From Pseudomonas taetrolens (GTDB lineage: Bacteria; Pseudomonadota; Gammaproteobacteria; Pseudomonadales; Pseudomonadaceae), in the NCBI RefSeq assembly GCF_900475285.1, contig NZ_LS483370.1, positions 3,610,001 through 3,674,000 of the forward strand: a DNA stretch of 64,000 nt, read 5' to 3'. Shown here one piece after another: positions 10,512 to 31,185 of this stretch. A program made the position numbers and the translations under genes. The notes below the pieces were generated by a model, which worked only from the letters and a program-made list of their open reading frames with translations, made no database searches and was not told where the DNA came from. The first letter of the stretch is position 1. Each line of letters opens with the position of its first letter.

Positions 10512-11939
10512 TTACAAGGTCAGCGTGCCGCTATAAAGCCCATAGGCCGCTGAAATCGCCGCGATCACCACCGCAGCGAATATCACTTTCTCCAACGGTT
10601 TGAACAGCGGTTGATGCTCCTCGCGTTTGGCTTTGGCAAAAAGGAAAACACCCGGTGCATAGAGCAGTGCCGACAACAGCAAGTACTTGGGCCCTGCGGC
10701 ATACAGCAACCACATTGCGTAGATCAGCGCGATGGCTGCAATCAGCAGATCCTTGAGTCGTTGACGACTGGCGTGCGTGTAAGTCTCGCCCCTCAGGCAC
10801 AACAGCAGCGCGTAGGCCGCGGACCACAGGTAAGGCACAAGAATCATCGATGAGGCCAGGTAGATCAGGCTGGTGTAAGTGCCTGCAGAAAACAGGGTGA
10901 TCATCAGGAAAATCTGGATCATGGAGTTGGTCAGCCACAGGGCGTTGACCGGTACATGATTGGCATTTTCCTTTTTCAGGAACGCCGGCATGGTTTTGTC
11001 CCTGGCCGTGGCAAACAGAATTTCGGCGCATAACAAAGCCCATGACAGCAACGCGCCCAACAATGAAATCGCCAGACCGATACTGATCAGGATCGCCCCC
11101 CACTCTCCCACCACGTGCTTGAGCACCCCGGCCATGGACGGGTTCTGCAATTTCGCAAGTTCCGGCTGACTCATGATCCCCAAGGACAGCACGTTGACCA
11201 GCACCAACAAGGCCAGCACCCCCAGAAAACCGATAACCGTGGCCTTGCCCACATCTGAGCGCTTTTCAGCTCTCCCCGAATACACGCTGGCACCTTCAAT
11301 GCCGATAAATACGAACACCGTAACCAGCATCATGTTGCGTACCTGATCCATCACGCTGCCCAGATCAGGGGTTGCCGCACCCCATAGATCACGGGTGAAA
11401 ATATCGGCCTTGAATGCCACAGCAGCCAGCACGATAAACATCACGATGGGGATGATTTTGGCGACGGTGGTCACCAGGTTGATAAAGGCGGCTTCCTTGA
11501 TCCCGCGCAGTACCAGGAAGTGCACCGCCCACAGCAATAACGAGGCGCAACCGATGGCGATCGGTGTATTGCCCTGCCCAAACACCGGAATGAAATAGCC
11601 CAAGGTGCTGAACAGCAGCACAAAGTAGCCGACGTTCCCCAGCCAGGCGCTGATCCAGTAGCCCCAGGCGGATGAGAAGCCCATGTAATCGCCAAAGCCG
11701 GCTTTCGCATAGGCATAGACGCCTGAATCCAGCTCAGGTTTGCGATTGGCCAGGGTCTGGAACACAAAGGCCAGTGCCAGCATCCCCACGGCCGTGATCG
11801 CCCAACCAATCAATACGGCGCCACCTGCAGCGCGCTCAGCAATATTTTGCGGCAACGAAAAAATCCCGCCGCCAATCATTGAGCCGACCACCAGGGCGAT
11901 CAAGGCGTTAATCCGAAGTTTCTGTGCCTGCAGGGCCAT
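10512..11939 (-). CDS. ArcD-like arginine/ornithine antiporter, second copy
   Basis: 475 residues, an APC-superfamily transporter with about 12 membrane helices. The substrate motif GSMIGGGIFSLPQN sits in helix 1. It is strongly similar along its whole length to the ArcD at 12384-13811, sharing, for example, SSAWGYWISAWLGNVGYF and NPSMAGVLKHVV. ATG 11939 is preferred over GTG 11945 because AAGAGG then lies at normal spacing and the length equals ArcD. It is divergent from arcDABC and not visibly in an operon. It is probably a basic amino acid/polyamine antiporter; substrate identity could differ from ArcD. Confidence 0.9.
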   Translation of the reverse strand: MALQAQKLRINALIALVVGSMIGGGIFSLPQNIAERAAGGAVLIGWAITAVGMLALAFVFQTLANRKPELDSGVYAYAKAGFGDYMGFSSAWGYWISAWLGNVGYFVLLFSTLGYFIPVFGQGNTPIAIGCASLLLWAVHFLVLRGIKEAAFINLVTTVAKIIPIVMFIVLAAVAFKADIFTRDLWGAATPDLGSVMDQVRNMMLVTVFVFIGIEGASVYSGRAEKRSDVGKATVIGFLGVLALLVLVNVLSLGIMSQPELAKLQNPSMAGVLKHVVGEWGAILISIGLAISLLGALLSWALLCAEILFATARDKTMPAFLKKENANHVPVNALWLTNSMIQIFLMITLFSAGTYTSLIYLASSMILVPYLWSAAYALLLCLRGETYTHASRQRLKDLLIAAIALIYAMWLLYAAGPKYLLLSALLYAPGVFLFAKAKREEHQPLFKPLEKVIFAAVVIAAISAAYGLYSGTLTL

Positions 11940-12306
11940 CGCCACCTCTTGGTTTATTAATTACTCATAATTATCAGATTACCGGCGCTCAAAGACTAAA
12001 TATATAAACTGATCATTCGTATATACCCTCACCACAATAAGGCATGCCCTTTTAATAGCCATATTTTCTATTGAAGCCTAAAAAGCAATACACATATAGA
12101 TGTCAGTTTTATTGTTCGACAGACCGATGAAACATGAAAATGATATTTGCATATCTGCGAATAGTGACTAGCGTCAACCCTCACGACATTGCAGTTCACA
12201 CCGCGGTATTACTTGAAGGTGCTTATGGAGCAAGCTTTTCAAGACGCGTCAAAATAATGCGCGATCGCGACCCTCCGCTCTACTGACAATGGAATGTAGT
12301 AATGCC
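11940..12306. other. AT-rich divergent intergenic region
   Basis: About 440 bp separate the two antiporter genes, and the left part is clearly AT-rich compared with its surroundings. No gene was found. An imperfect inverted repeat, CTTGAAG...CTTTTCAAG, lies near 12212-12244. Promoters for the leftward gene must be here but none is convincing by eye. Confidence 0.5.
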
Positions 12307-12320
12307 CTGATCTAAGTCAA
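12307..12320. promoter_or_regulatory. ANR/FNR box of the arcDABC promoter
   Basis: CTGAT-CTAA-GTCAA matches TTGAT-N4-ATCAA at 8 of 10 positions. A -10-like TAATCT follows at 12342-12347, so a start near 12354 would place the box at about -41, the class II position known for the arcDABC promoter of P. aeruginosa. Inferred role: anaerobic activation by ANR. Confidence 0.75.
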
Positions 12321-12383
12321 CTGGCTAAAACACTAACGGACTAATCTTTAGACCTTACTTCTCCTGGGTTGGAGTCACTACAA

Positions 12384-13811
12384 ATGTCTGATACTCCTGG
12401 AAAACTGCGACTGGGTGCATTGGTTGCTCTGGTAGTCGGCTCAATGATTGGCGGCGGGATTTTCTCACTGCCTCAAAACATGGCCGCCAGCGCGGATGTC
12501 GGCGCTGTCCTGATTGGCTGGGCAATAACCGCGGTCGGTATGCTGACCCTGGCCTTTGTGTTCCAGACCCTGGCCAATCGCAAGCCAGATCTGGATGGCG
12601 GTGTATACGCCTATGCCAAGGCCGGCTTTGGCGACTACATGGGCTTCTCATCCGCCTGGGGCTACTGGATCAGCGCCTGGCTGGGGAACGTCGGCTATTT
12701 TGTGCTGCTGTTCAGCACCCTGGGCTATTTCTTCCCGATCTTCGGCGAAGGCAACACACCGGCCGCGATCATTGGTGCTTCGATATTGCTTTGGGCCGTG
12801 CATTTCCTGGTACTGCGCGGGATCAAGGAAGCTGCCTTTATCAACCTGGTGACCACCATTGCCAAAGTGGTACCGCTGATTCTGTTCATTCTGATTGCCT
12901 TCTTCGCCTTCAGGCTGGACATCTTTACCAGCGACATCTGGGGCCTGAAAAACCCTGACCTGGGCAGTGTGATGGACCAGGTACGCAACATGATGCTGGT
13001 GACCGTCTGGGTGTTTATCGGTATCGAAGGCGCGAGCATCTTCTCCTCACGTGCCGAAAAACGCTCTGACGTCGGCAAGGCCACCGTCATAGGCTTTATC
13101 ACCGTGCTGCTGTTGCTGGTGCTGGTGAACGTACTGTCGCTGGGCATCATGACTCAGCCTGAACTGGCCAAACTGCAGAACCCTTCGATGGCCGCCGTGC
13201 TTGAACATGTGGTGGGTCACTGGGGAGCGGTGTTGATCAGCGTCGGCTTGATCATCTCTCTGCTGGGAGCCCTGTTGTCGTGGGTGCTGCTATGCGCCGA
13301 AATCATGTTCTCGGCCGCTAAAGACCACACCATGCCGGCCTTCCTGAAAAAGGAAAACGCCAACCATGTACCGGTCAACGCCCTGTGGCTGACCAATGCC
13401 ATGGTCCAGTTGTTCCTGATCATCACCCTGTTCTCGGCCAGCACGTACCTGTCGCTGATCTACTTGGCAACCTCGATGATCCTGGTGCCTTACCTCTGGT
13501 CAGCGGCCTATGGCTTCCTGTTGGCGGTACGCGGAGAGACTTACGAAAACGCCCTGGCAGAACGCAAGAAAGACCTGATCATCGGCTCCATTGCACTGAT
13601 CTACGCCATCTGGCTGCTCTATGCCGGTGGCCTGAAGTACCTGCTGCTTTCAGCACTGTTGTATGCCCCTGGCGCCATTCTGTTCGCCAAGGCCAAGCGC
13701 GAAAGCGGCCAGCAAGTGTTCACAAGCATTGAGAAAGTGATCTTTGCCGCCGTAGTGATCGGTGCCCTGGTAGCGGCCTACGGGCTCTACGACGGCTTCC
13801 TGACCCTGTAA
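12384..13811 (+). CDS. arcD: Arginine/ornithine antiporter ArcD
   Basis: 475 residues, about 12 membrane segments, APC superfamily. It exchanges external arginine for internal ornithine for the arginine deiminase pathway. N-terminal motif GSMIGGGIFSLPQN. The ATG at 12384 follows GGAG at 12371-12374; a TTG start at 12369 was rejected because it overlaps that ribosome site. It is the first gene of arcDABC, 33 bp before arcA. A close paralog lies divergently upstream at 10512. Confidence 0.95.
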   Translation: MSDTPGKLRLGALVALVVGSMIGGGIFSLPQNMAASADVGAVLIGWAITAVGMLTLAFVFQTLANRKPDLDGGVYAYAKAGFGDYMGFSSAWGYWISAWLGNVGYFVLLFSTLGYFFPIFGEGNTPAAIIGASILLWAVHFLVLRGIKEAAFINLVTTIAKVVPLILFILIAFFAFRLDIFTSDIWGLKNPDLGSVMDQVRNMMLVTVWVFIGIEGASIFSSRAEKRSDVGKATVIGFITVLLLLVLVNVLSLGIMTQPELAKLQNPSMAAVLEHVVGHWGAVLISVGLIISLLGALLSWVLLCAEIMFSAAKDHTMPAFLKKENANHVPVNALWLTNAMVQLFLIITLFSASTYLSLIYLATSMILVPYLWSAAYGFLLAVRGETYENALAERKKDLIIGSIALIYAIWLLYAGGLKYLLLSALLYAPGAILFAKAKRESGQQVFTSIEKVIFAAVVIGALVAAYGLYDGFLTL

Positions 13812-17740: not shown

Positions 17741-17898
17741 TTTTTGGGCCGCAGCTTCAGGATGTCCATCGCAGTTAACGAGTGGAACGAGGCGACGTCC
17801 GCCCCCTCTCAGGGAGGCCACGGGGACTTGCGCATTTCACCATTCCCCAAGGCCAAGGCATACTGGCCACCTCCAGTCCCGAAGTGTTCGTTTTTACC

Positions 17899-19406
17899 AT
17901 GCGTATCCATGTCAGCTTTATCGACCGAGTCGGCATCACCCAGGAAGTCCTGGCATTGCTTGGCGGACGTAATCTCAACCTGGATGCGGTGGAAATGGTC
18001 CCACCCAACGTTTACATCGATGCCCCGACCCTGAGCCCGCAAGTGCTCGACGAACTGCGCGAAGCCCTGTTCAGGGTCAAGGGTGTGCAGTCGGTCATGG
18101 TGGTCGACATCCTTCCCGGTCAGCGTCGTCACCTGCAACTTGATGCTCTGCTCGCTGCCATGACAGATCCCGTGCTCGCGCTGGACAGCGACGGGCATGT
18201 ACTGCTGGCCAACCCGGCACTGGTGGCGTTATATGGCCGCGAACCGACAGGCAAGAGCATCGGCGAACTGTTTGCCGATCCCGGATTGCTCGATGTGTTG
18301 CTCGAGAACGGTTTTCGCCTGCCATTGCGCGAAGTCACACTCAACGGGCATCCGTTAATGCTCGACGCGACGCCTATCACCGACGCGGGCGCCCTGCTCA
18401 CCCTGTATCAACCGAGCCGCATCGGCGAACGACTGGCGGCGCTGCACCACGATCACGCTGAAGGCTTTGATGCCCTGCTGGGCGACTCGCCTGCCATTCG
18501 CACGCTCAAGGCCCGGGCACAGCGCGTCGCAACCCTCGACGCACCGCTGCTGATCCAGGGCGAAACCGGTACCGGTAAAGAACTTGTGGCCCGCGCCTGC
18601 CATGCCATCAGTGAGCGTTTCGGTGCGCCTTTTCTGGCCCTGAACTGCGCGGCACTGCCCGAAAACCTGGCTGAAAGCGAGCTGTTCGGATACGCCCCCG
18701 GTGCATTTACCGGCGCTCAACGCGGCGGCAAACCGGGGTTGATGGAGCTGGCCAACAACGGGACGGTTTTCCTCGACGAAATCGCTGAAATGTCGCCTTA
18801 TCTGCAAGCCAAGCTGCTGCGTTTTTTAAACGATGGTAGCTTCCGCAGAGTCGGGGGCGAACGTGAGGTCAAGGTCAATGTCCGGATCCTCAGTGCGACC
18901 CACCGCAACCTCGAAAAAATGGTCAATGAAGGCACTTTTCGCGAAGACCTGTTCTATCGCCTGAACGTGCTCAACATCGAAGTGCCCCCCTGCGTGAACG
19001 GGGCCAGGACATTTTGCTGCTGGCGCGCACCTTCATGCAGCAGGCTTGCACACAGATCCAGCGCCCCGTGTGCCGTCTGGCCCCCGGAACCTACCCGGCC
19101 CTGCTGGGCAACCGGTGGCCGGGTAACGTACGCCAATTACAGAACGTGATCTTCCGTGCGGCGGCAATTTGCGAAAGCTCGCTGGTCGATATTGGCGACC
19201 TGGACATTGCCGGGACCTCTGTGGCACGGCAAAGCGACGGTGAAGTCGAGACCCTGGAGCACGCCGTCGAGTCCTTTGAAAAAGCGCTGCTCGAAAAGCT
19301 CTACGTCAACTACCCCTCTACCCGGCAACTGGCTAGCCGTTTGCAAACCTCCCACACTGCAATTGCGCATCGGCTGCGCAAATACGGTATCCCCGGCAAA
19401 GCCTGA
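17899..19406 (+). pseudogene. gcsR: GcsR, TyrR-like enhancer-binding regulator of the glycine cleavage operon, frameshifted
   Basis: In order: an ACT domain (residues 1-75, MRIHVSFIDRVGITQE), a PAS-like segment (78-190), a sigma-54 AAA+ domain with Walker A GETGTGKE at 221-228, GAFTGA at 268-273 and Walker B GTVFLDEIAEM, then a C-terminal HTH. After Pro364 the reading frame is lost at a run of six C (18985-18990). With seven C the family sequence RLNVLNIEVPPLRERGQD would be restored and the protein would be 502 residues. As written, translation stops at 19149 (416 residues) without the HTH. It lies upstream of gcvH, as gcsR does in P. aeruginosa. A homopolymer sequencing error is possible. 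Confidence 0.88.
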
Positions 19407-26899: not shown

Positions 26900-28312
26900 T
26901 TACTCGGCCAGTTTGAAGGTAATGAAACTCGCACGGCCTTGACGCAGAACCCGCATCGACACCGAACGGTTTTTCGGCAAGGCCTTGGCAATTTCAGCAA
27001 ACTGCTTGGTATCGCTGATCGCTTGGTTGTTCAAGTGCGTAATCACATCGCCAGGCTGCAAGCCAATCAAGGCTGCCGGACCATCCTGCACACTCTTGAT
27101 GACCACGCCGCCTTTGATGTCGTTGGCCTTCTTCTGCTCTTCGCTCAAGTTGGCCACCGCCACGCCCAGGCGATTACTGCTCTGATCGGCACCCGCAGGC
27201 GAACCAAACTCTTTCCCTTCATCAGGGATGGCTCCAACGGTCAGATCCAGGGTTTTGCGTTTGCCTTCGCGAACCACCTCAAGGGATGCCTTGCCACCCG
27301 CCTTGAGTGCGCCCACAAGATGTGGCAAATCGGCTGACATGATAATCGGCTGACCATTCATGCTCAGGATCACATCACCTACTTGCAAGCCGCCTTTGGC
27401 GGCCGGGCCATCATCCAGCACCTGAGCGACCAGCGCACCGGCCGGCTTCTCAAGCCCGAACGACTCGGCCAGATCCTTATTGACCTCTTGAATCACGACC
27501 CCCAACCAGCCACGGCTGACCTTGCCGCCGCTTTTAAGTTGATTGGATACATCCATCGCCACATCGATAGGAATGGCGAAGGACACGCCCATGAAACCAC
27601 CGGAGCGAGTATAGATTTGCGAGTTGATACCGACGACTTCACCCGCCAGGTTGAACAGCGGACCACCGGAGTTGCCTGGATTGATTGGCACGTCGGTCTG
27701 GATAAACGGTACGTAGCTTTCATTCGGCAAACTACGACCGATGGCGCTGATGATGCCTTGGGTCACGGTGTGGTCAAAGCCGAACGGCGAACCGATTGCA
27801 ACCACCCACTGACCGGCCTTGAGGTCCTGGGACTTGCCCAGTTTCAAGACAGGCAGGTTCTTGCCTTCGATTTTCAGCAATGCAACATCGGAACGTGGAT
27901 CGGTGCCGACCAGCTTGGCTTTCATCTCGCTGCGGTCAGACAGTCGCACGATGATCTCATCAGCATCCGCTACCACGTGATTGTTGGTGAGGATGTAACC
28001 ATCCGATGAAATGATAAAACCCGAGCCCAGGGATTGGGCTTCGCGCTGACGCCCTCCCTGGTTTGGCGGAATACTGCGCTCAAAGAAGTCACGCAAGCCT
28101 GGTGGCAAGCCTTCCAGGTCGGGCATCGGCCCCATATTGGAGACTTTGCGGTCCGGGAGTTTTTGCGTGGTACTGATGTTCACGACCGCTGGCGAAGCCT
28201 GCTCGACCAACTGCGTGAAATCAGGTAGCTGTGCTTCGGCCAATGCCGGCACTGCCTGCCCAAGCATCAGTACGGCCGCGAAAATGGGTAAGTAAGATTT
28301 CAATCGAGGCAT
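26900..28312 (-). CDS. mucD: Periplasmic serine protease MucD (DegP/HtrA family)
   Basis: 470 residues from ATG 28312; the ORF reaches 28405, but MPRLKSYLPIFAAVLMLGQAVP begins the signal peptide, so that start is used. The trypsin-like domain has His in NNHVVADAD, Asp in DPRSDVALLKIEG and Ser in NPGNSGGPL; two PDZ domains follow. It degrades misfolded envelope proteins and restrains AlgU activation. It lies at the end of the algU-muc cluster, with a 182-bp gap to mucB in place of mucC. Confidence 0.95.
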   Translation of the reverse strand: MPRLKSYLPIFAAVLMLGQAVPALAEAQLPDFTQLVEQASPAVVNISTTQKLPDRKVSNMGPMPDLEGLPPGLRDFFERSIPPNQGGRQREAQSLGSGFIISSDGYILTNNHVVADADEIIVRLSDRSEMKAKLVGTDPRSDVALLKIEGKNLPVLKLGKSQDLKAGQWVVAIGSPFGFDHTVTQGIISAIGRSLPNESYVPFIQTDVPINPGNSGGPLFNLAGEVVGINSQIYTRSGGFMGVSFAIPIDVAMDVSNQLKSGGKVSRGWLGVVIQEVNKDLAESFGLEKPAGALVAQVLDDGPAAKGGLQVGDVILSMNGQPIIMSADLPHLVGALKAGGKASLEVVREGKRKTLDLTVGAIPDEGKEFGSPAGADQSSNRLGVAVANLSEEQKKANDIKGGVVIKSVQDGPAALIGLQPGDVITHLNNQAISDTKQFAEIAKALPKNRSVSMRVLRQGRASFITFKLAE

Positions 28313-28412
28313 TGATATACAGCTCCCGTTGATAGCAAGCAAAATTAAACGGCAGGTCCAAAAATCAACGCTAGCATAGACCGCTTTTCGGACCCCTGAA
28401 TACAAACAAGGC

Positions 28413-28494: not shown

Positions 28495-29460
28495 TTACTT
28501 GGGCTTTGCCTCTGGGGCATCCTTACCAGCGCGCACCGAGAGTGCAATGCGTTCAGCAGTCCCCATCGGAATTTCGCCGACCACCGTCGCCATCATGTCT
28601 CCCTCAGGCGTAGTGAGATGCCGGGAAACTGCAACGGTAGGGCCCAACTGAACCCGGGCGTCAGGTACGGCTGAACCTTTCAAAGGCTCGAGAAACACCG
28701 AAAAACGCGTCATGCCATCATCATACAAAAGGCTGGTGACTTCAGATTTTGTACGTGGATCACGGCGCACTACGCTGCTGATCTGTTCAAAACCGGGAGG
28801 CAACCAGTCGGAATGCCAAGCATGGGTATTATCGGTGGTGGCAGGTGGCGTCTGCGCGGTGACAATCGGTCGACATTGAGCTGTCGGCTTGAGTTCATTG
28901 TCATCCGGAGGCGTGGTATCGAGGCTTGTAAACTGGAAGCGCTCGAGCAACTGCCCTTTGTCATTGAGCAGCAATGATTTGAGCGGCAACCCGGTCTCAC
29001 GGTCCAGATACAGCTCAAACCCGTAGCGGTGCTGGTCGCGGGGAGAGAGCGCAATCACGGCGACAGGCCGCCCCGCCACCCTTGAGTCACCGGTTTTTTC
29101 CACCGAGTACCAGTCGTTCAGGCGCGAGGTATCCAGCTGTCGGCTGGATGGCGCAGAGAGATCTCCGGGGGTGGGAATCACCTTGCCAGTGACACACTCG
29201 GTGCGCCCACCGGCACGAACGACTTCTTGCGCAGCACCGTCCAGCCGGATCAATCGCTCACGAACGTCACCATCCTGCACGCGGTGCCAGATGCTGTGGG
29301 TAGAAAAACTACCGTTGCGTTCGTAAACAAAAGTGCCTTTGTAACTTTGCTGTTGATCAGCCTGCCCAAAGCGTTTAAGCCAGTTCTGGGCTTCATCCGC
29401 CTGGGCTGGTACGACAAACCAGCCGCTGAGCAGAAGAGGTAATAAGGGTAGGACGCGCAT
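28495..29460 (-). CDS. mucB: MucB (RseB family), periplasmic regulator of MucA
   Basis: 321 residues. A signal peptide of about 21 residues, MRVLPLLPLLLSGWFVVPAQ, then an N-terminal lipid-binding-like domain and a smaller C-terminal domain (about 215-310). MucB binds the periplasmic part of MucA and shields it from AlgW cleavage, so it keeps the sigma factor AlgU sequestered. It lies eight bases after mucA and is clearly cotranscribed with it. Confidence 0.95.
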   Translation of the reverse strand: MRVLPLLPLLLSGWFVVPAQADEAQNWLKRFGQADQQQSYKGTFVYERNGSFSTHSIWHRVQDGDVRERLIRLDGAAQEVVRAGGRTECVTGKVIPTPGDLSAPSSRQLDTSRLNDWYSVEKTGDSRVAGRPVAVIALSPRDQHRYGFELYLDRETGLPLKSLLLNDKGQLLERFQFTSLDTTPPDDNELKPTAQCRPIVTAQTPPATTDNTHAWHSDWLPPGFEQISSVVRRDPRTKSEVTSLLYDDGMTRFSVFLEPLKGSAVPDARVQLGPTVAVSRHLTTPEGDMMATVVGEIPMGTAERIALSVRAGKDAPEAKPK

Positions 29461-29468
29461 GTTTGTCC

Positions 29469-30059
29469 TTAACGGTCATCCTGGCTAGCTGCACGAGCAT
29501 ACGGCAAAGGACTTTCAGTCCCTTTTGACGCAGCTTGCTGGGCATGCTGGCGCAGGTAACCTGGCAAACGCTGATCGTGCCAGCCGGGTTGACCTTGCAA
29601 GACACCATTGGCCATCGGCCCTGTGCCTTGATCAGAGCTCTCGCTGTAATTGGCCAGTACCGCAGGACCTTTAGCCGTTGGAGCAGTCAGGCTTTGCTGG
29701 CTGTCTTGCTGTGCCAGCTGGGCGCCAGCGATTTCATCCTGGTTGTACAGTCTTACGCCTGCCAATACTGCAACTGTCACCGAAGCAGCGACGGCCAAAC
29801 GGCCAATAGTGCGCCACGGGCCACGTGCAACTTTGGCCGGAGTTTGCTCTTCGGCCAATGCAGCCGACACGGCAGATGCGATGTCCAGACGCGGAATCAG
29901 CAGGTCCTTGTGCATCACAGCACGGGCCACTTGGTAGCGAGACCAGGTGTCACGCGTTTGTGCATCGTCGAAGGCATTCAATACCCGACGTAGTTCCAGT
30001 TCGTCCGCTTCGTTATCCATCACCGCGGACAGCGATTCCTGCAGGGCTTCACGACTCAT
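29469..30059 (-). CDS. mucA: Anti-sigma factor MucA
   Basis: 196 residues from ATG 30059 (MSREALQESLSAVMDNEAD); the longer ORF overlaps algU and is not used. The N-terminal cytoplasmic anti-sigma domain covers about 1-80, one membrane segment about 85-103, and the rest is periplasmic. It holds AlgU inactive. The gene reads through without the truncations seen in mucoid isolates. It lies 31 bp after algU. Since algU is interrupted here, MucA may have no partner. Confidence 0.96.
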   Translation of the reverse strand: MSREALQESLSAVMDNEADELELRRVLNAFDDAQTRDTWSRYQVARAVMHKDLLIPRLDIASAVSAALAEEQTPAKVARGPWRTIGRLAVAASVTVAVLAGVRLYNQDEIAGAQLAQQDSQQSLTAPTAKGPAVLANYSESSDQGTGPMANGVLQGQPGWHDQRLPGYLRQHAQQAASKGTESPLPYARAASQDDR

Positions 30060-30090: not shown

Positions 30091-30672
30091 TCAGTTTTCC
30101 TGCAACAACGGCTGCAGGGCTTTATCGATGGCTTCCCGAGCGCGGAAAATCCGGGAGCGCACGGTACCCACCGGACATTGCATGACGCTCGCAATATCCT
30201 CGTAACTCAGACCATCAAACTCACGTAAAGTTAACGCCGTTCGTAAGTCTTCTGGCAGTAACTGAATCGTGCGATGAACCGTACCCTCGATCTCATCCCG
30301 GAGCAGAGCGCGCTCCGGCGATTCGAGATCCTTAAGACCATGATCACCATCGTAAAATTCAGCGTCTTCAGAGCTGACATCACTGTCTGGTGGACGCCGA
30401 CCGCGTGATACCAGATAGTTTTTCGCCGTATTAATGGCGATGCGATACAGCCAAGTTTAAAAGGCACTGTCGCCGCGAAAATTGCCAAGGGCCCGGTAAG
30501 CCTTGATGAAGGCTTCTTGAGCCACGTCTTGGGCTTCATGGGTGTCGTGCACAAAACGCACGATCAACCCGAGAATTTTGTGCTGGTATTTCAGCACCAG
30601 CAGATCGAATGCGCGCTTGTCGCCACGCTGTACGCGCTCGACCAGCTGCTGATCCTCTTCCTGGGTTAGCAT
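30091..30672 (-). pseudogene. algU: Sigma factor AlgU (RpoE/sigma-22), interrupted by an in-frame stop codon
   Basis: The reading frame is 194 codons including the stop, exactly the AlgU length, and both halves match AlgU closely. Region 2 is DVAQEAFIKAYRALGNFRG and region 4 is LPEDLRTALTLREFDGLSYE. After Phe71 the codon that is Tyr (TAT/TAC) in the family is TAA (minus strand, + coordinates 30457-30459), followed in the same frame by TWLYRIAINTAKN. So it is a single nonsense substitution, not an indel. The 71-residue product lacks part of region 2 and all of region 4, so it should be inactive. ATG 30672 is preferred over GTG 30678. First gene of algU-mucA-mucB-mucD. Confidence 0.93.
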
Positions 30673-31185
30673 GAACACTCCTCATGGGACCAAGAGGAAG
30701 GTTGCTTTGCTAATTGAACAGACTTGCAAACATAGACTCGGGCTTTACGCAAAAGTTCTCTCCCCCCTGGCAAATTTCCTGCGCACTCGGATTTGGCACG
30801 CACGAAAACGCAGCTCGGGCATGGCCGGCTGCGTCGGTAATCTTGTCGTCAAATTCCGCCGCCGAAGTCGAAGTACAAACCCCGCATCGCATTCAACGCT
30901 GTTCTCCTGCATTCAGGGCAACCTTCTATGGAGCCCTTAGCCGTACGAAAAGTTCAAAAAAACGTACGAATTCAAACCCTAGGATGCCATGAGAATGCGG
31001 CTGGGCACGAGCCCCGCCAAGCCCTGAGGACCTTGCAGATTAATTGTGAAAACGGCATGCAGACGCTTCAAGTCTGAGGCACACTTCGTGCCCGCTGTAG
31101 TTTCACAATGCCACAAAGGCCCGGCTATTGTGCCGATCCCCCCCTCTATATACTAGTGGGCGCTTTTTTTGCGGACGTCAGAAGA
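30673..31185. other. Divergent algU/nadB intergenic region
   Basis: 513 bp without a gene on either strand. It holds the AlgU-type promoter and, close to nadB, a TATACT (31149-31154) that may be a -10 element with TTGTGC upstream. The rest shows no recognisable structure. Confidence 0.5.
30927..30955 (-). promoter_or_regulatory. AlgU-type autoregulatory promoter
   Basis: On the minus strand GAACTT, a 17-base spacer and TCCATA match the AlgU/RpoE consensus GAACTT-N16/17-TCCAA. It lies about 255 bp upstream of algU. AlgU autoregulation is known in P. aeruginosa. Confidence 0.75.

What the first reader, a model, noticed from the sequence alone, without database searches (positions are those of the whole stretch)
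30457..30459. algU carries an in-frame nonsense codon (Tyr72 to TAA)
The AlgU frame is intact over 194 codons apart from one TAA where the family has Tyr. Both halves keep clear homology, so this is a recent point change. Loss of AlgU would abolish the envelope stress response and alginate control. mucA is not truncated, so the change is not an obvious suppressor of mucA-type mucoidy. Laboratory or host adaptation, or an assembly error, are alternatives.
Basis: partly seen in the sequence, partly recalled or inferred. Interest (0 to 1): 0.78.

Follow-up and report, generated by a model that had tools for sequence, protein, structure and literature searches.

The report
Stop codon inactivates sigma factor AlgU
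One Pseudomonas genome carries a recent stop codon in the gene for its envelope-stress regulator AlgU, most likely a one-off loss of a kind already known from laboratory and patient strains, in a bacterium that seems to have no alginate operon left to control.

Summary
On the minus strand algU (start 30672) reads 71 codons, meets TAA at 30457-30459, and stays open for 121 more codons to its normal stop. It is the only AlgU-type gene in the 4.84 Mb genome. None of 248 other same-genus genomes searched has a stop in this gene. Apart from the stop, the protein equals that of P. psychrophila despite 51 synonymous codon differences, so the loss is very recent. Spontaneous algU loss is documented in Azotobacter vinelandii OP and in P. 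aeruginosa CF isolates (passages).

There is probably no alginate to control: no alginate exporter (PF13372) was found genome-wide, and a 17.1 kb stretch holding the alginate operon in relative G251 is replaced by about 145 bp here. Three relatives without the exporter keep algU open, so alginate loss alone does not explain it. MucA, MucB, MucD and the AlgW- and MucP-like proteases are open. Best reading: a real, recent, strain-level null of a known kind; an assembly error cannot be excluded without reads.

The parts
30457..30459 (-). in-frame TAA stop, codon 72 of algU
30460..30672 (-). algU upstream piece, 71 codons: most of the sigma-2 domain without its last part
30091..30456 (-). algU downstream remnant: 121 open codons (end of sigma-2, linker, sigma-4) and the normal stop
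30733..30758 (-). AlgU-type promoter-like site GAACTT-N16-TCTA upstream of algU, found in 7 of 7 relatives scanned
   Evidence: the consensus is recalled, and a stricter form of it (GAACTT-N15-18-TCNNA) had no match in the window or in the relatives scanned
29469..30059 (-). mucA (anti-sigma factor), intact, 196 aa
   Evidence: weak RseA match (37.8 bits), name by position and family
28495..29460 (-). mucB (RseB family), open
26900..28405 (-). mucD (Do-family protease) open frame; true start not determined; 89 bp to mucB leave no room for a mucC

Best explanation
A recent spontaneous nonsense mutation has made algU a null allele in this strain. Shown: the stop; a single gene copy; open partner genes; near-perfect conservation of the rest of the frame; no alginate exporter and no operon at the place where a relative has it. 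Inferred: translation ends after 71 residues, before the end of sigma-2 and before all of sigma-4, so AlgU-dependent promoters are not used and the self-activated algU-mucA-mucB promoter goes quiet. The cell keeps a full MucA/B/D-AlgW-MucP pathway with nothing for it to release. The loss is probably private to the sequenced isolate, tolerated or mildly favoured in culture or its niche, as in other recorded algU nulls.
For: Stop and frame. One AlgU gene; the 8 other, weaker ECF-type matches have no stop. No stop in 248 other same-genus genomes. Against P. psychrophila (L043): 51 synonymous codon differences and no amino-acid difference except the stop. Zero amino-acid changes over about 440 nonsynonymous sites puts a 95% upper bound near 0.7% on neutral divergence since the loss, while the ten nearest loci differ by 46-61 synonymous codons over about 136 synonymous sites. 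After the stop the first in-frame ATG/GTG/TTG is codon 164, leaving at most 30 residues. Solved AlgU-type chains cover both pieces, and separate sigma-2 and sigma-4 structures align across and beyond the break. Precedents: A. vinelandii OP/DJ, P. aeruginosa CF isolates, proteins that look like frameshifted AlgU.
Against: No reads and no second strain of the same species could be examined, so the allele could be an error or could be fixed in the species. Three of six broken genes found in this genome are single-base indels in or beside G/C runs, a pattern I associate with long-read error, so polishing may be imperfect. [quoted passage not shown] passage), and A. vinelandii OP is reported to regain gum at times despite its algU loss (passage).
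Confidence: 0.76

Rival explanations
1. The stop is a sequencing or assembly error and the strain has a normal algU.
For: The rest of the gene is perfectly conserved. Single-base indels in or beside G/C runs in phhR, a ctpA-like gene and an AraC-type gene suggest imperfect polishing.
Against: The change is a base substitution outside a homopolymer. Another substitution nonsense (FAD-oxidoreductase-like gene) and an 8-base deletion in the same genome are not homopolymer errors either. Only 5 breaks were accepted among 374 compared genes, plus the ctpA-like one that the filter missed. The assembly is one contig.
Confidence: 0.13
2. The stop is fixed in the whole species: a lineage that lost alginate has now dropped its AlgU stress response.
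For: The alginate operon appears to be missing here.
Against: G298, G310 and G398 also lack the AlgE family yet have open algU genes. No decay beyond the stop. Among 120 listed of 519 short AlgU-like proteins no 71-aa one matches this product closely, although one cluster of 88 sequences 99% like another protein of this window exists. This is weak, because the window's own product is not listed either.
Confidence: 0.07
3. algU was lost as a suppressor of chronic envelope stress caused by another lesion, for example the broken CtpA-like S41 protease.
For: A CtpA-like gene beside envC is frameshifted in the same genome. Suppressing algU mutations are known in mucA mutants of P. aeruginosa (passages).
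Against: mucA, mucB, mucD and the AlgW- and MucP-like genes are open. The ctpA frameshift lies in a G run and may be an artefact. One search was meant to find a CtpA-AlgU link; of its 10 listed papers (122 held at least 3 of 4 terms) only one contains the word CtpA, once; it was not read.
Confidence: 0.04

Closest known systems
Azotobacter vinelandii OP/CA/DJ algU null
   Same: Spontaneous loss of algU with the muc genes intact in a widely used strain (passages in PMC4824345 and PMC4465626).
   Different: There an insertion of about 1 kb interrupts the gene and the alginate operon is present; here a nonsense codon, and no alginate operon found.
P. aeruginosa algU mutations in cystic fibrosis isolates
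   Same: Loss or weakening of AlgU in nature (passages in PMC8190622 and PMC3750012).
   Different: The cases described there reverse mucoidy, as in a mucA mutant; here mucA is intact and no alginate exporter was found.
Short AlgU-like proteins in public databases (P0007, P0008, P0010, P0012, P0013)
   Same: Their sequences leave the AlgU frame right after codon 71, next to the same place; P0010 stands for 12 contigs and P0012 for 11.
   Different: They look like frameshifts, not a nonsense substitution; no organism is named for them in the listing, and some may be errors.

Membership tests
algU/rpoE-type ECF sigma factor (TIGR02939) | matches the RpoE equivalog model above cut-off over its length | tested here: met
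   317.9 bits over 3-190 with one stop counted, cut-off 236.15; each piece alone scores below it (111.1 and 191.7)
algU/rpoE-type ECF sigma factor (TIGR02939) | located upstream of mucA-mucB-mucD | tested here: met
functional AlgU sigma factor | continuous frame through sigma-2 and sigma-4 | tested here: not met
   TAA at codon 72; no in-frame ATG/GTG/TTG between it and codon 164
spontaneous algU null allele | single disrupting lesion, otherwise intact locus | tested here: met
spontaneous algU null allele | loss of AlgU activity in the cell | not testable with these tools
   needs expression or reporter data
spontaneous algU null allele | absent from other strains of the same species | not tested
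   no second strain of the species could be identified in the collections used
mucA-type mucoidy suppressor | mutated mucA | tested here: not met
   MucA 196 aa, full length, 81-91% identical to 13 relatives
alginate-producing Pseudomonas | alginate operon with AlgE exporter | tested here: not met
   only AlgE was sought genome-wide, the other alg genes only at the expected place

The most novel reading that the evidence does not exclude
A wild Pseudomonas lineage (the species or a sub-lineage of it) that has discarded the alginate operon has now also lost AlgU, leaving an otherwise complete MucA/B/D-AlgW-MucP pathway without its sigma factor: a natural test of what that pathway does without AlgU.
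Probability: 0.1. Interest if true: 0.5.

Novelty: new member of a known kind. Interest (0 to 1): 0.2.

Why it matters
AlgU is kept without a stop in every one of the 248 other same-genus genomes searched here (247 in one full-length match, one split over contigs). A null in a species-representative genome therefore matters to anyone who uses this strain for stress, biofilm or spoilage work: its envelope-stress response is probably defective (inference). The side result is more general: G298, G310 and G398 have no match to the alginate exporter family and still keep an open algU, which suggests that AlgU is maintained for reasons other than alginate.

Tried and rejected
Second copy of algU: none; the other 8 ECF-type matches score at most 63.3 bits. 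Restart downstream of the stop giving a sigma-4 domain: the first in-frame ATG/GTG/TTG is codon 164; rarer start codons were not considered. Programmed frameshift at the stop: rejected because the downstream half is in the same frame as the upstream half. Ochre suppressor tRNA: not tested genome-wide; the window has one tRNA, Gly-CCC. mucA suppressor: MucA intact. Naming the species: among the 80 named loci kept of 563, the nearest are P. psychrophila HA-4 and P. helleri. Size and G+C (4.84 Mb; 56.5-57.7% in the window) resemble P. lundensis as reported in PMC5814480 (whole text), but this was not proven; the words algU, mucA and alginate do not occur in the text of PMC8903896 on P. lundensis. 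The even draw (398 genomes of a larger group) may also miss the true nearest relative.

Papers. Searches: 13 papers, all listed; 2; 12 of 37 listed; 9; 8; 5; 10 of 71 listed; 10 of 122 listed; 6. Read as passages: PMC3750012, PMC8559602, PMC8903896, PMC8190622, PMC2885672 (66, nothing relevant in the passages shown), PMC13251409, PMC4824345, PMC4465626, PMC12772287. Read whole: PMC5814480. All other listed papers were seen as listings only. A naturally non-functional algT in P. syringae pv. glycinea PG4180 is recalled; the passages do not say so, and PMC1698189 is not held.

Dropped rows. One search found the start motif in 94 of 121 loci. One search counted 50 of 91 loci (only those aligning end to end without gaps). 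The raw flags were mostly antisense or start-extension frames and were replaced by a filter (protein identity at least 2.5 points above DNA identity); that filter also loses real genes, the ctpA-like gene among them, so the breaks are a lower bound. One search flagged 3 of 114 genes (and 4 of 135 in reverse). One search flagged 8 of 374; 5 were kept. A gcvT-like and a NUDIX-like frame were dropped because their stops lie before the likely start, and a 121-aa frame with a stop at codon 103 was dropped without further check. The ctpA-like break was noticed from the short open frame. The reverse comparison flagged 6 of 381 genes in G298; these were not inspected one by one, and one of them is phhR itself.

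Full report
What is there. On the minus strand algU starts at 30672 and runs 71 codons to a TAA at 30457-30459; the frame then stays open for 121 codons to the normal stop at 30091-30093. The upstream and downstream pieces each match the RpoE/AlgU family on their own. Downstream follow mucA (29469-30059), mucB (28495-29460) and mucD (open frame 26900-28405), all open. A GAACTT-N16-TCTA site, close to the AlgU promoter pattern as I recall it, lies upstream at 30733-30758 and is present in 7 of 7 relatives scanned; a stricter pattern had found nothing.

Is it real and unusual. The genome (one contig, 4,843,871 bases) holds a single AlgU-type gene, with one TAA; eight weaker ECF-type matches carry no stop. 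In 248 other same-genus genomes (88, 80 each) none has a stop inside this match; 247 have one full-length match, and one incomplete genome (G294) has it on two contigs. These 248 are part of the 397 other genomes drawn from the genus; the other 149 were not searched for this family. That the genus is Pseudomonas follows from the named loci. The nearest named loci, among the 80 kept there, are P. psychrophila and P. helleri.

How recent. Compared with P. psychrophila the AlgU protein is identical except for the stop, although 51 codons differ synonymously. With 0 amino-acid changes over about 440 nonsynonymous sites, neutral divergence since the loss is below about 0.7% at 95% (simple Poisson bound). 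The gene was under selection until very recently.

Alginate. The AlgE exporter family PF13372 has no match in this genome, nor in G298, G310 or G398, but one in each of the other 8 of 12 genomes searched. At the corresponding place G251 carries 17.1 kb (G251:C1:538241-555366) with an alginate operon: ten of its frames were scanned and nine matched families that fit (UDP-glucose/GDP-mannose dehydrogenase, glycosyltransferase 2, beta-helix, AlgX twice, alginate lyase, MBOAT, AlgF, mannose-6-phosphate isomerase), one matched none, and the AlgE match lies inside the stretch. In G000 about 145 bp (3817832-3817976) lie there, with collinear neighbours on both sides; in G298 about 3.2 kb without a listed match to the operon. 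Only AlgE was sought genome-wide. G298, G310 and G398 have open algU genes, so loss of alginate does not by itself bring loss of AlgU. On the tree of the mucA-mucB-algU locus the position of G000 inside the group is unresolved, so one or more alginate losses cannot be told apart.

How good is the assembly. Comparing 679 kb of G000 with 685 kb of G298, 374 coding-like genes passed the filter; 8 were flagged and 5 accepted as breaks: phhR (single-base frameshift in a C run, window 17884-19403), algU, an AraC-type regulator (single-base frameshift beside a C run), an FAD-oxidoreductase-like gene (nonsense) and a large membrane exporter-like protein (8-base deletion). The names of phhR and of the last three come from reading the sequences, not from a family search. 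A sixth, a CtpA-like S41 peptidase next to envC, was found separately (single-base frameshift in a G run). Three of the six are single-base indels in or beside G/C runs and may be sequencing errors; algU, the oxidoreductase-like gene and the 8-base deletion are not of that type. In the reverse direction 6 of 381 G000 genes were flagged in G298 and not inspected further. So the algU stop does not look like a typical homopolymer error, but only reads can settle it.

What it does. Inference: the 71-residue product ends inside sigma-2 and lacks sigma-4. Full-length AlgU-type chains (6in7, 8z6g) align to both pieces, sigma-2 chains (2mao, 2map) span the break, and a sigma-4 chain (2h27) aligns only beyond it; that these last are E. 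coli sigma-E is recalled. It therefore probably cannot act as a sigma factor. No in-frame ATG/GTG/TTG before codon 164 could restart a useful sigma-4. AlgW- and MucP-like proteases (names from family and memory) are open, so the signalling chain is complete but ends in nothing. Against full loss: a review passage notes that nonsense alleles sometimes keep function.

What is known. A. vinelandii OP and its derivatives carry a spontaneous insertion in algU with the muc genes intact (passages, PMC4824345 and PMC4465626), though gum is reported to re-emerge (passage, PMC12772287). P. aeruginosa CF isolates accumulate high-impact algU mutations, and compensatory algU mutations reverse mucoidy (passages, PMC8190622; PMC3750012). 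Of 18 short AlgU-like proteins read, out of 120 listed and 519 hits, five leave the frame right after codon 71 (P0007, P0008, P0010, P0012, P0013) and look like frameshifts; two of them stand for 11-12 contigs. No close 71-aa match is in the listing, but since the window's own product is not listed either, this says little.

Verdict. A real feature of the deposited sequence, most likely a recent strain-level null of a known kind; ordinary in kind, useful to flag, with a corrected consequence (stress response, not alginate).

Noticed in passing
window 17884-19403 (+): phhR-like sigma-54 activator (name from memory) broken by a single-base frameshift in a C run; the gene is open in G298, G310 and G251. 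May be a sequencing error.
   Followed up: partly
L176:10134-11506 (G000:C1:4595134-4596506): CtpA-like S41 peptidase beside envC broken by a single-base frameshift in a G run. If real, it could bear on envelope stress.
   Followed up: partly
G000:C1:3817832-3817976: About 145 bp in place of the 17.1 kb alginate operon region of relative G251; the AlgE family also has no match in G298, G310 and G398.
   Followed up: yes
G000:C1:4318178-4318953, 4335746-4337062, 4468144-4470460: Three more broken genes: an AraC-type regulator (frameshift), an FAD-oxidoreductase-like gene (nonsense) and a large membrane exporter-like gene (8-base deletion); names from reading the sequences.
   Followed up: no
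window 10515-13808: Two similar genes of about 477-480 codons (about 80% alike) face each other in opposite orientation.
   Followed up: no
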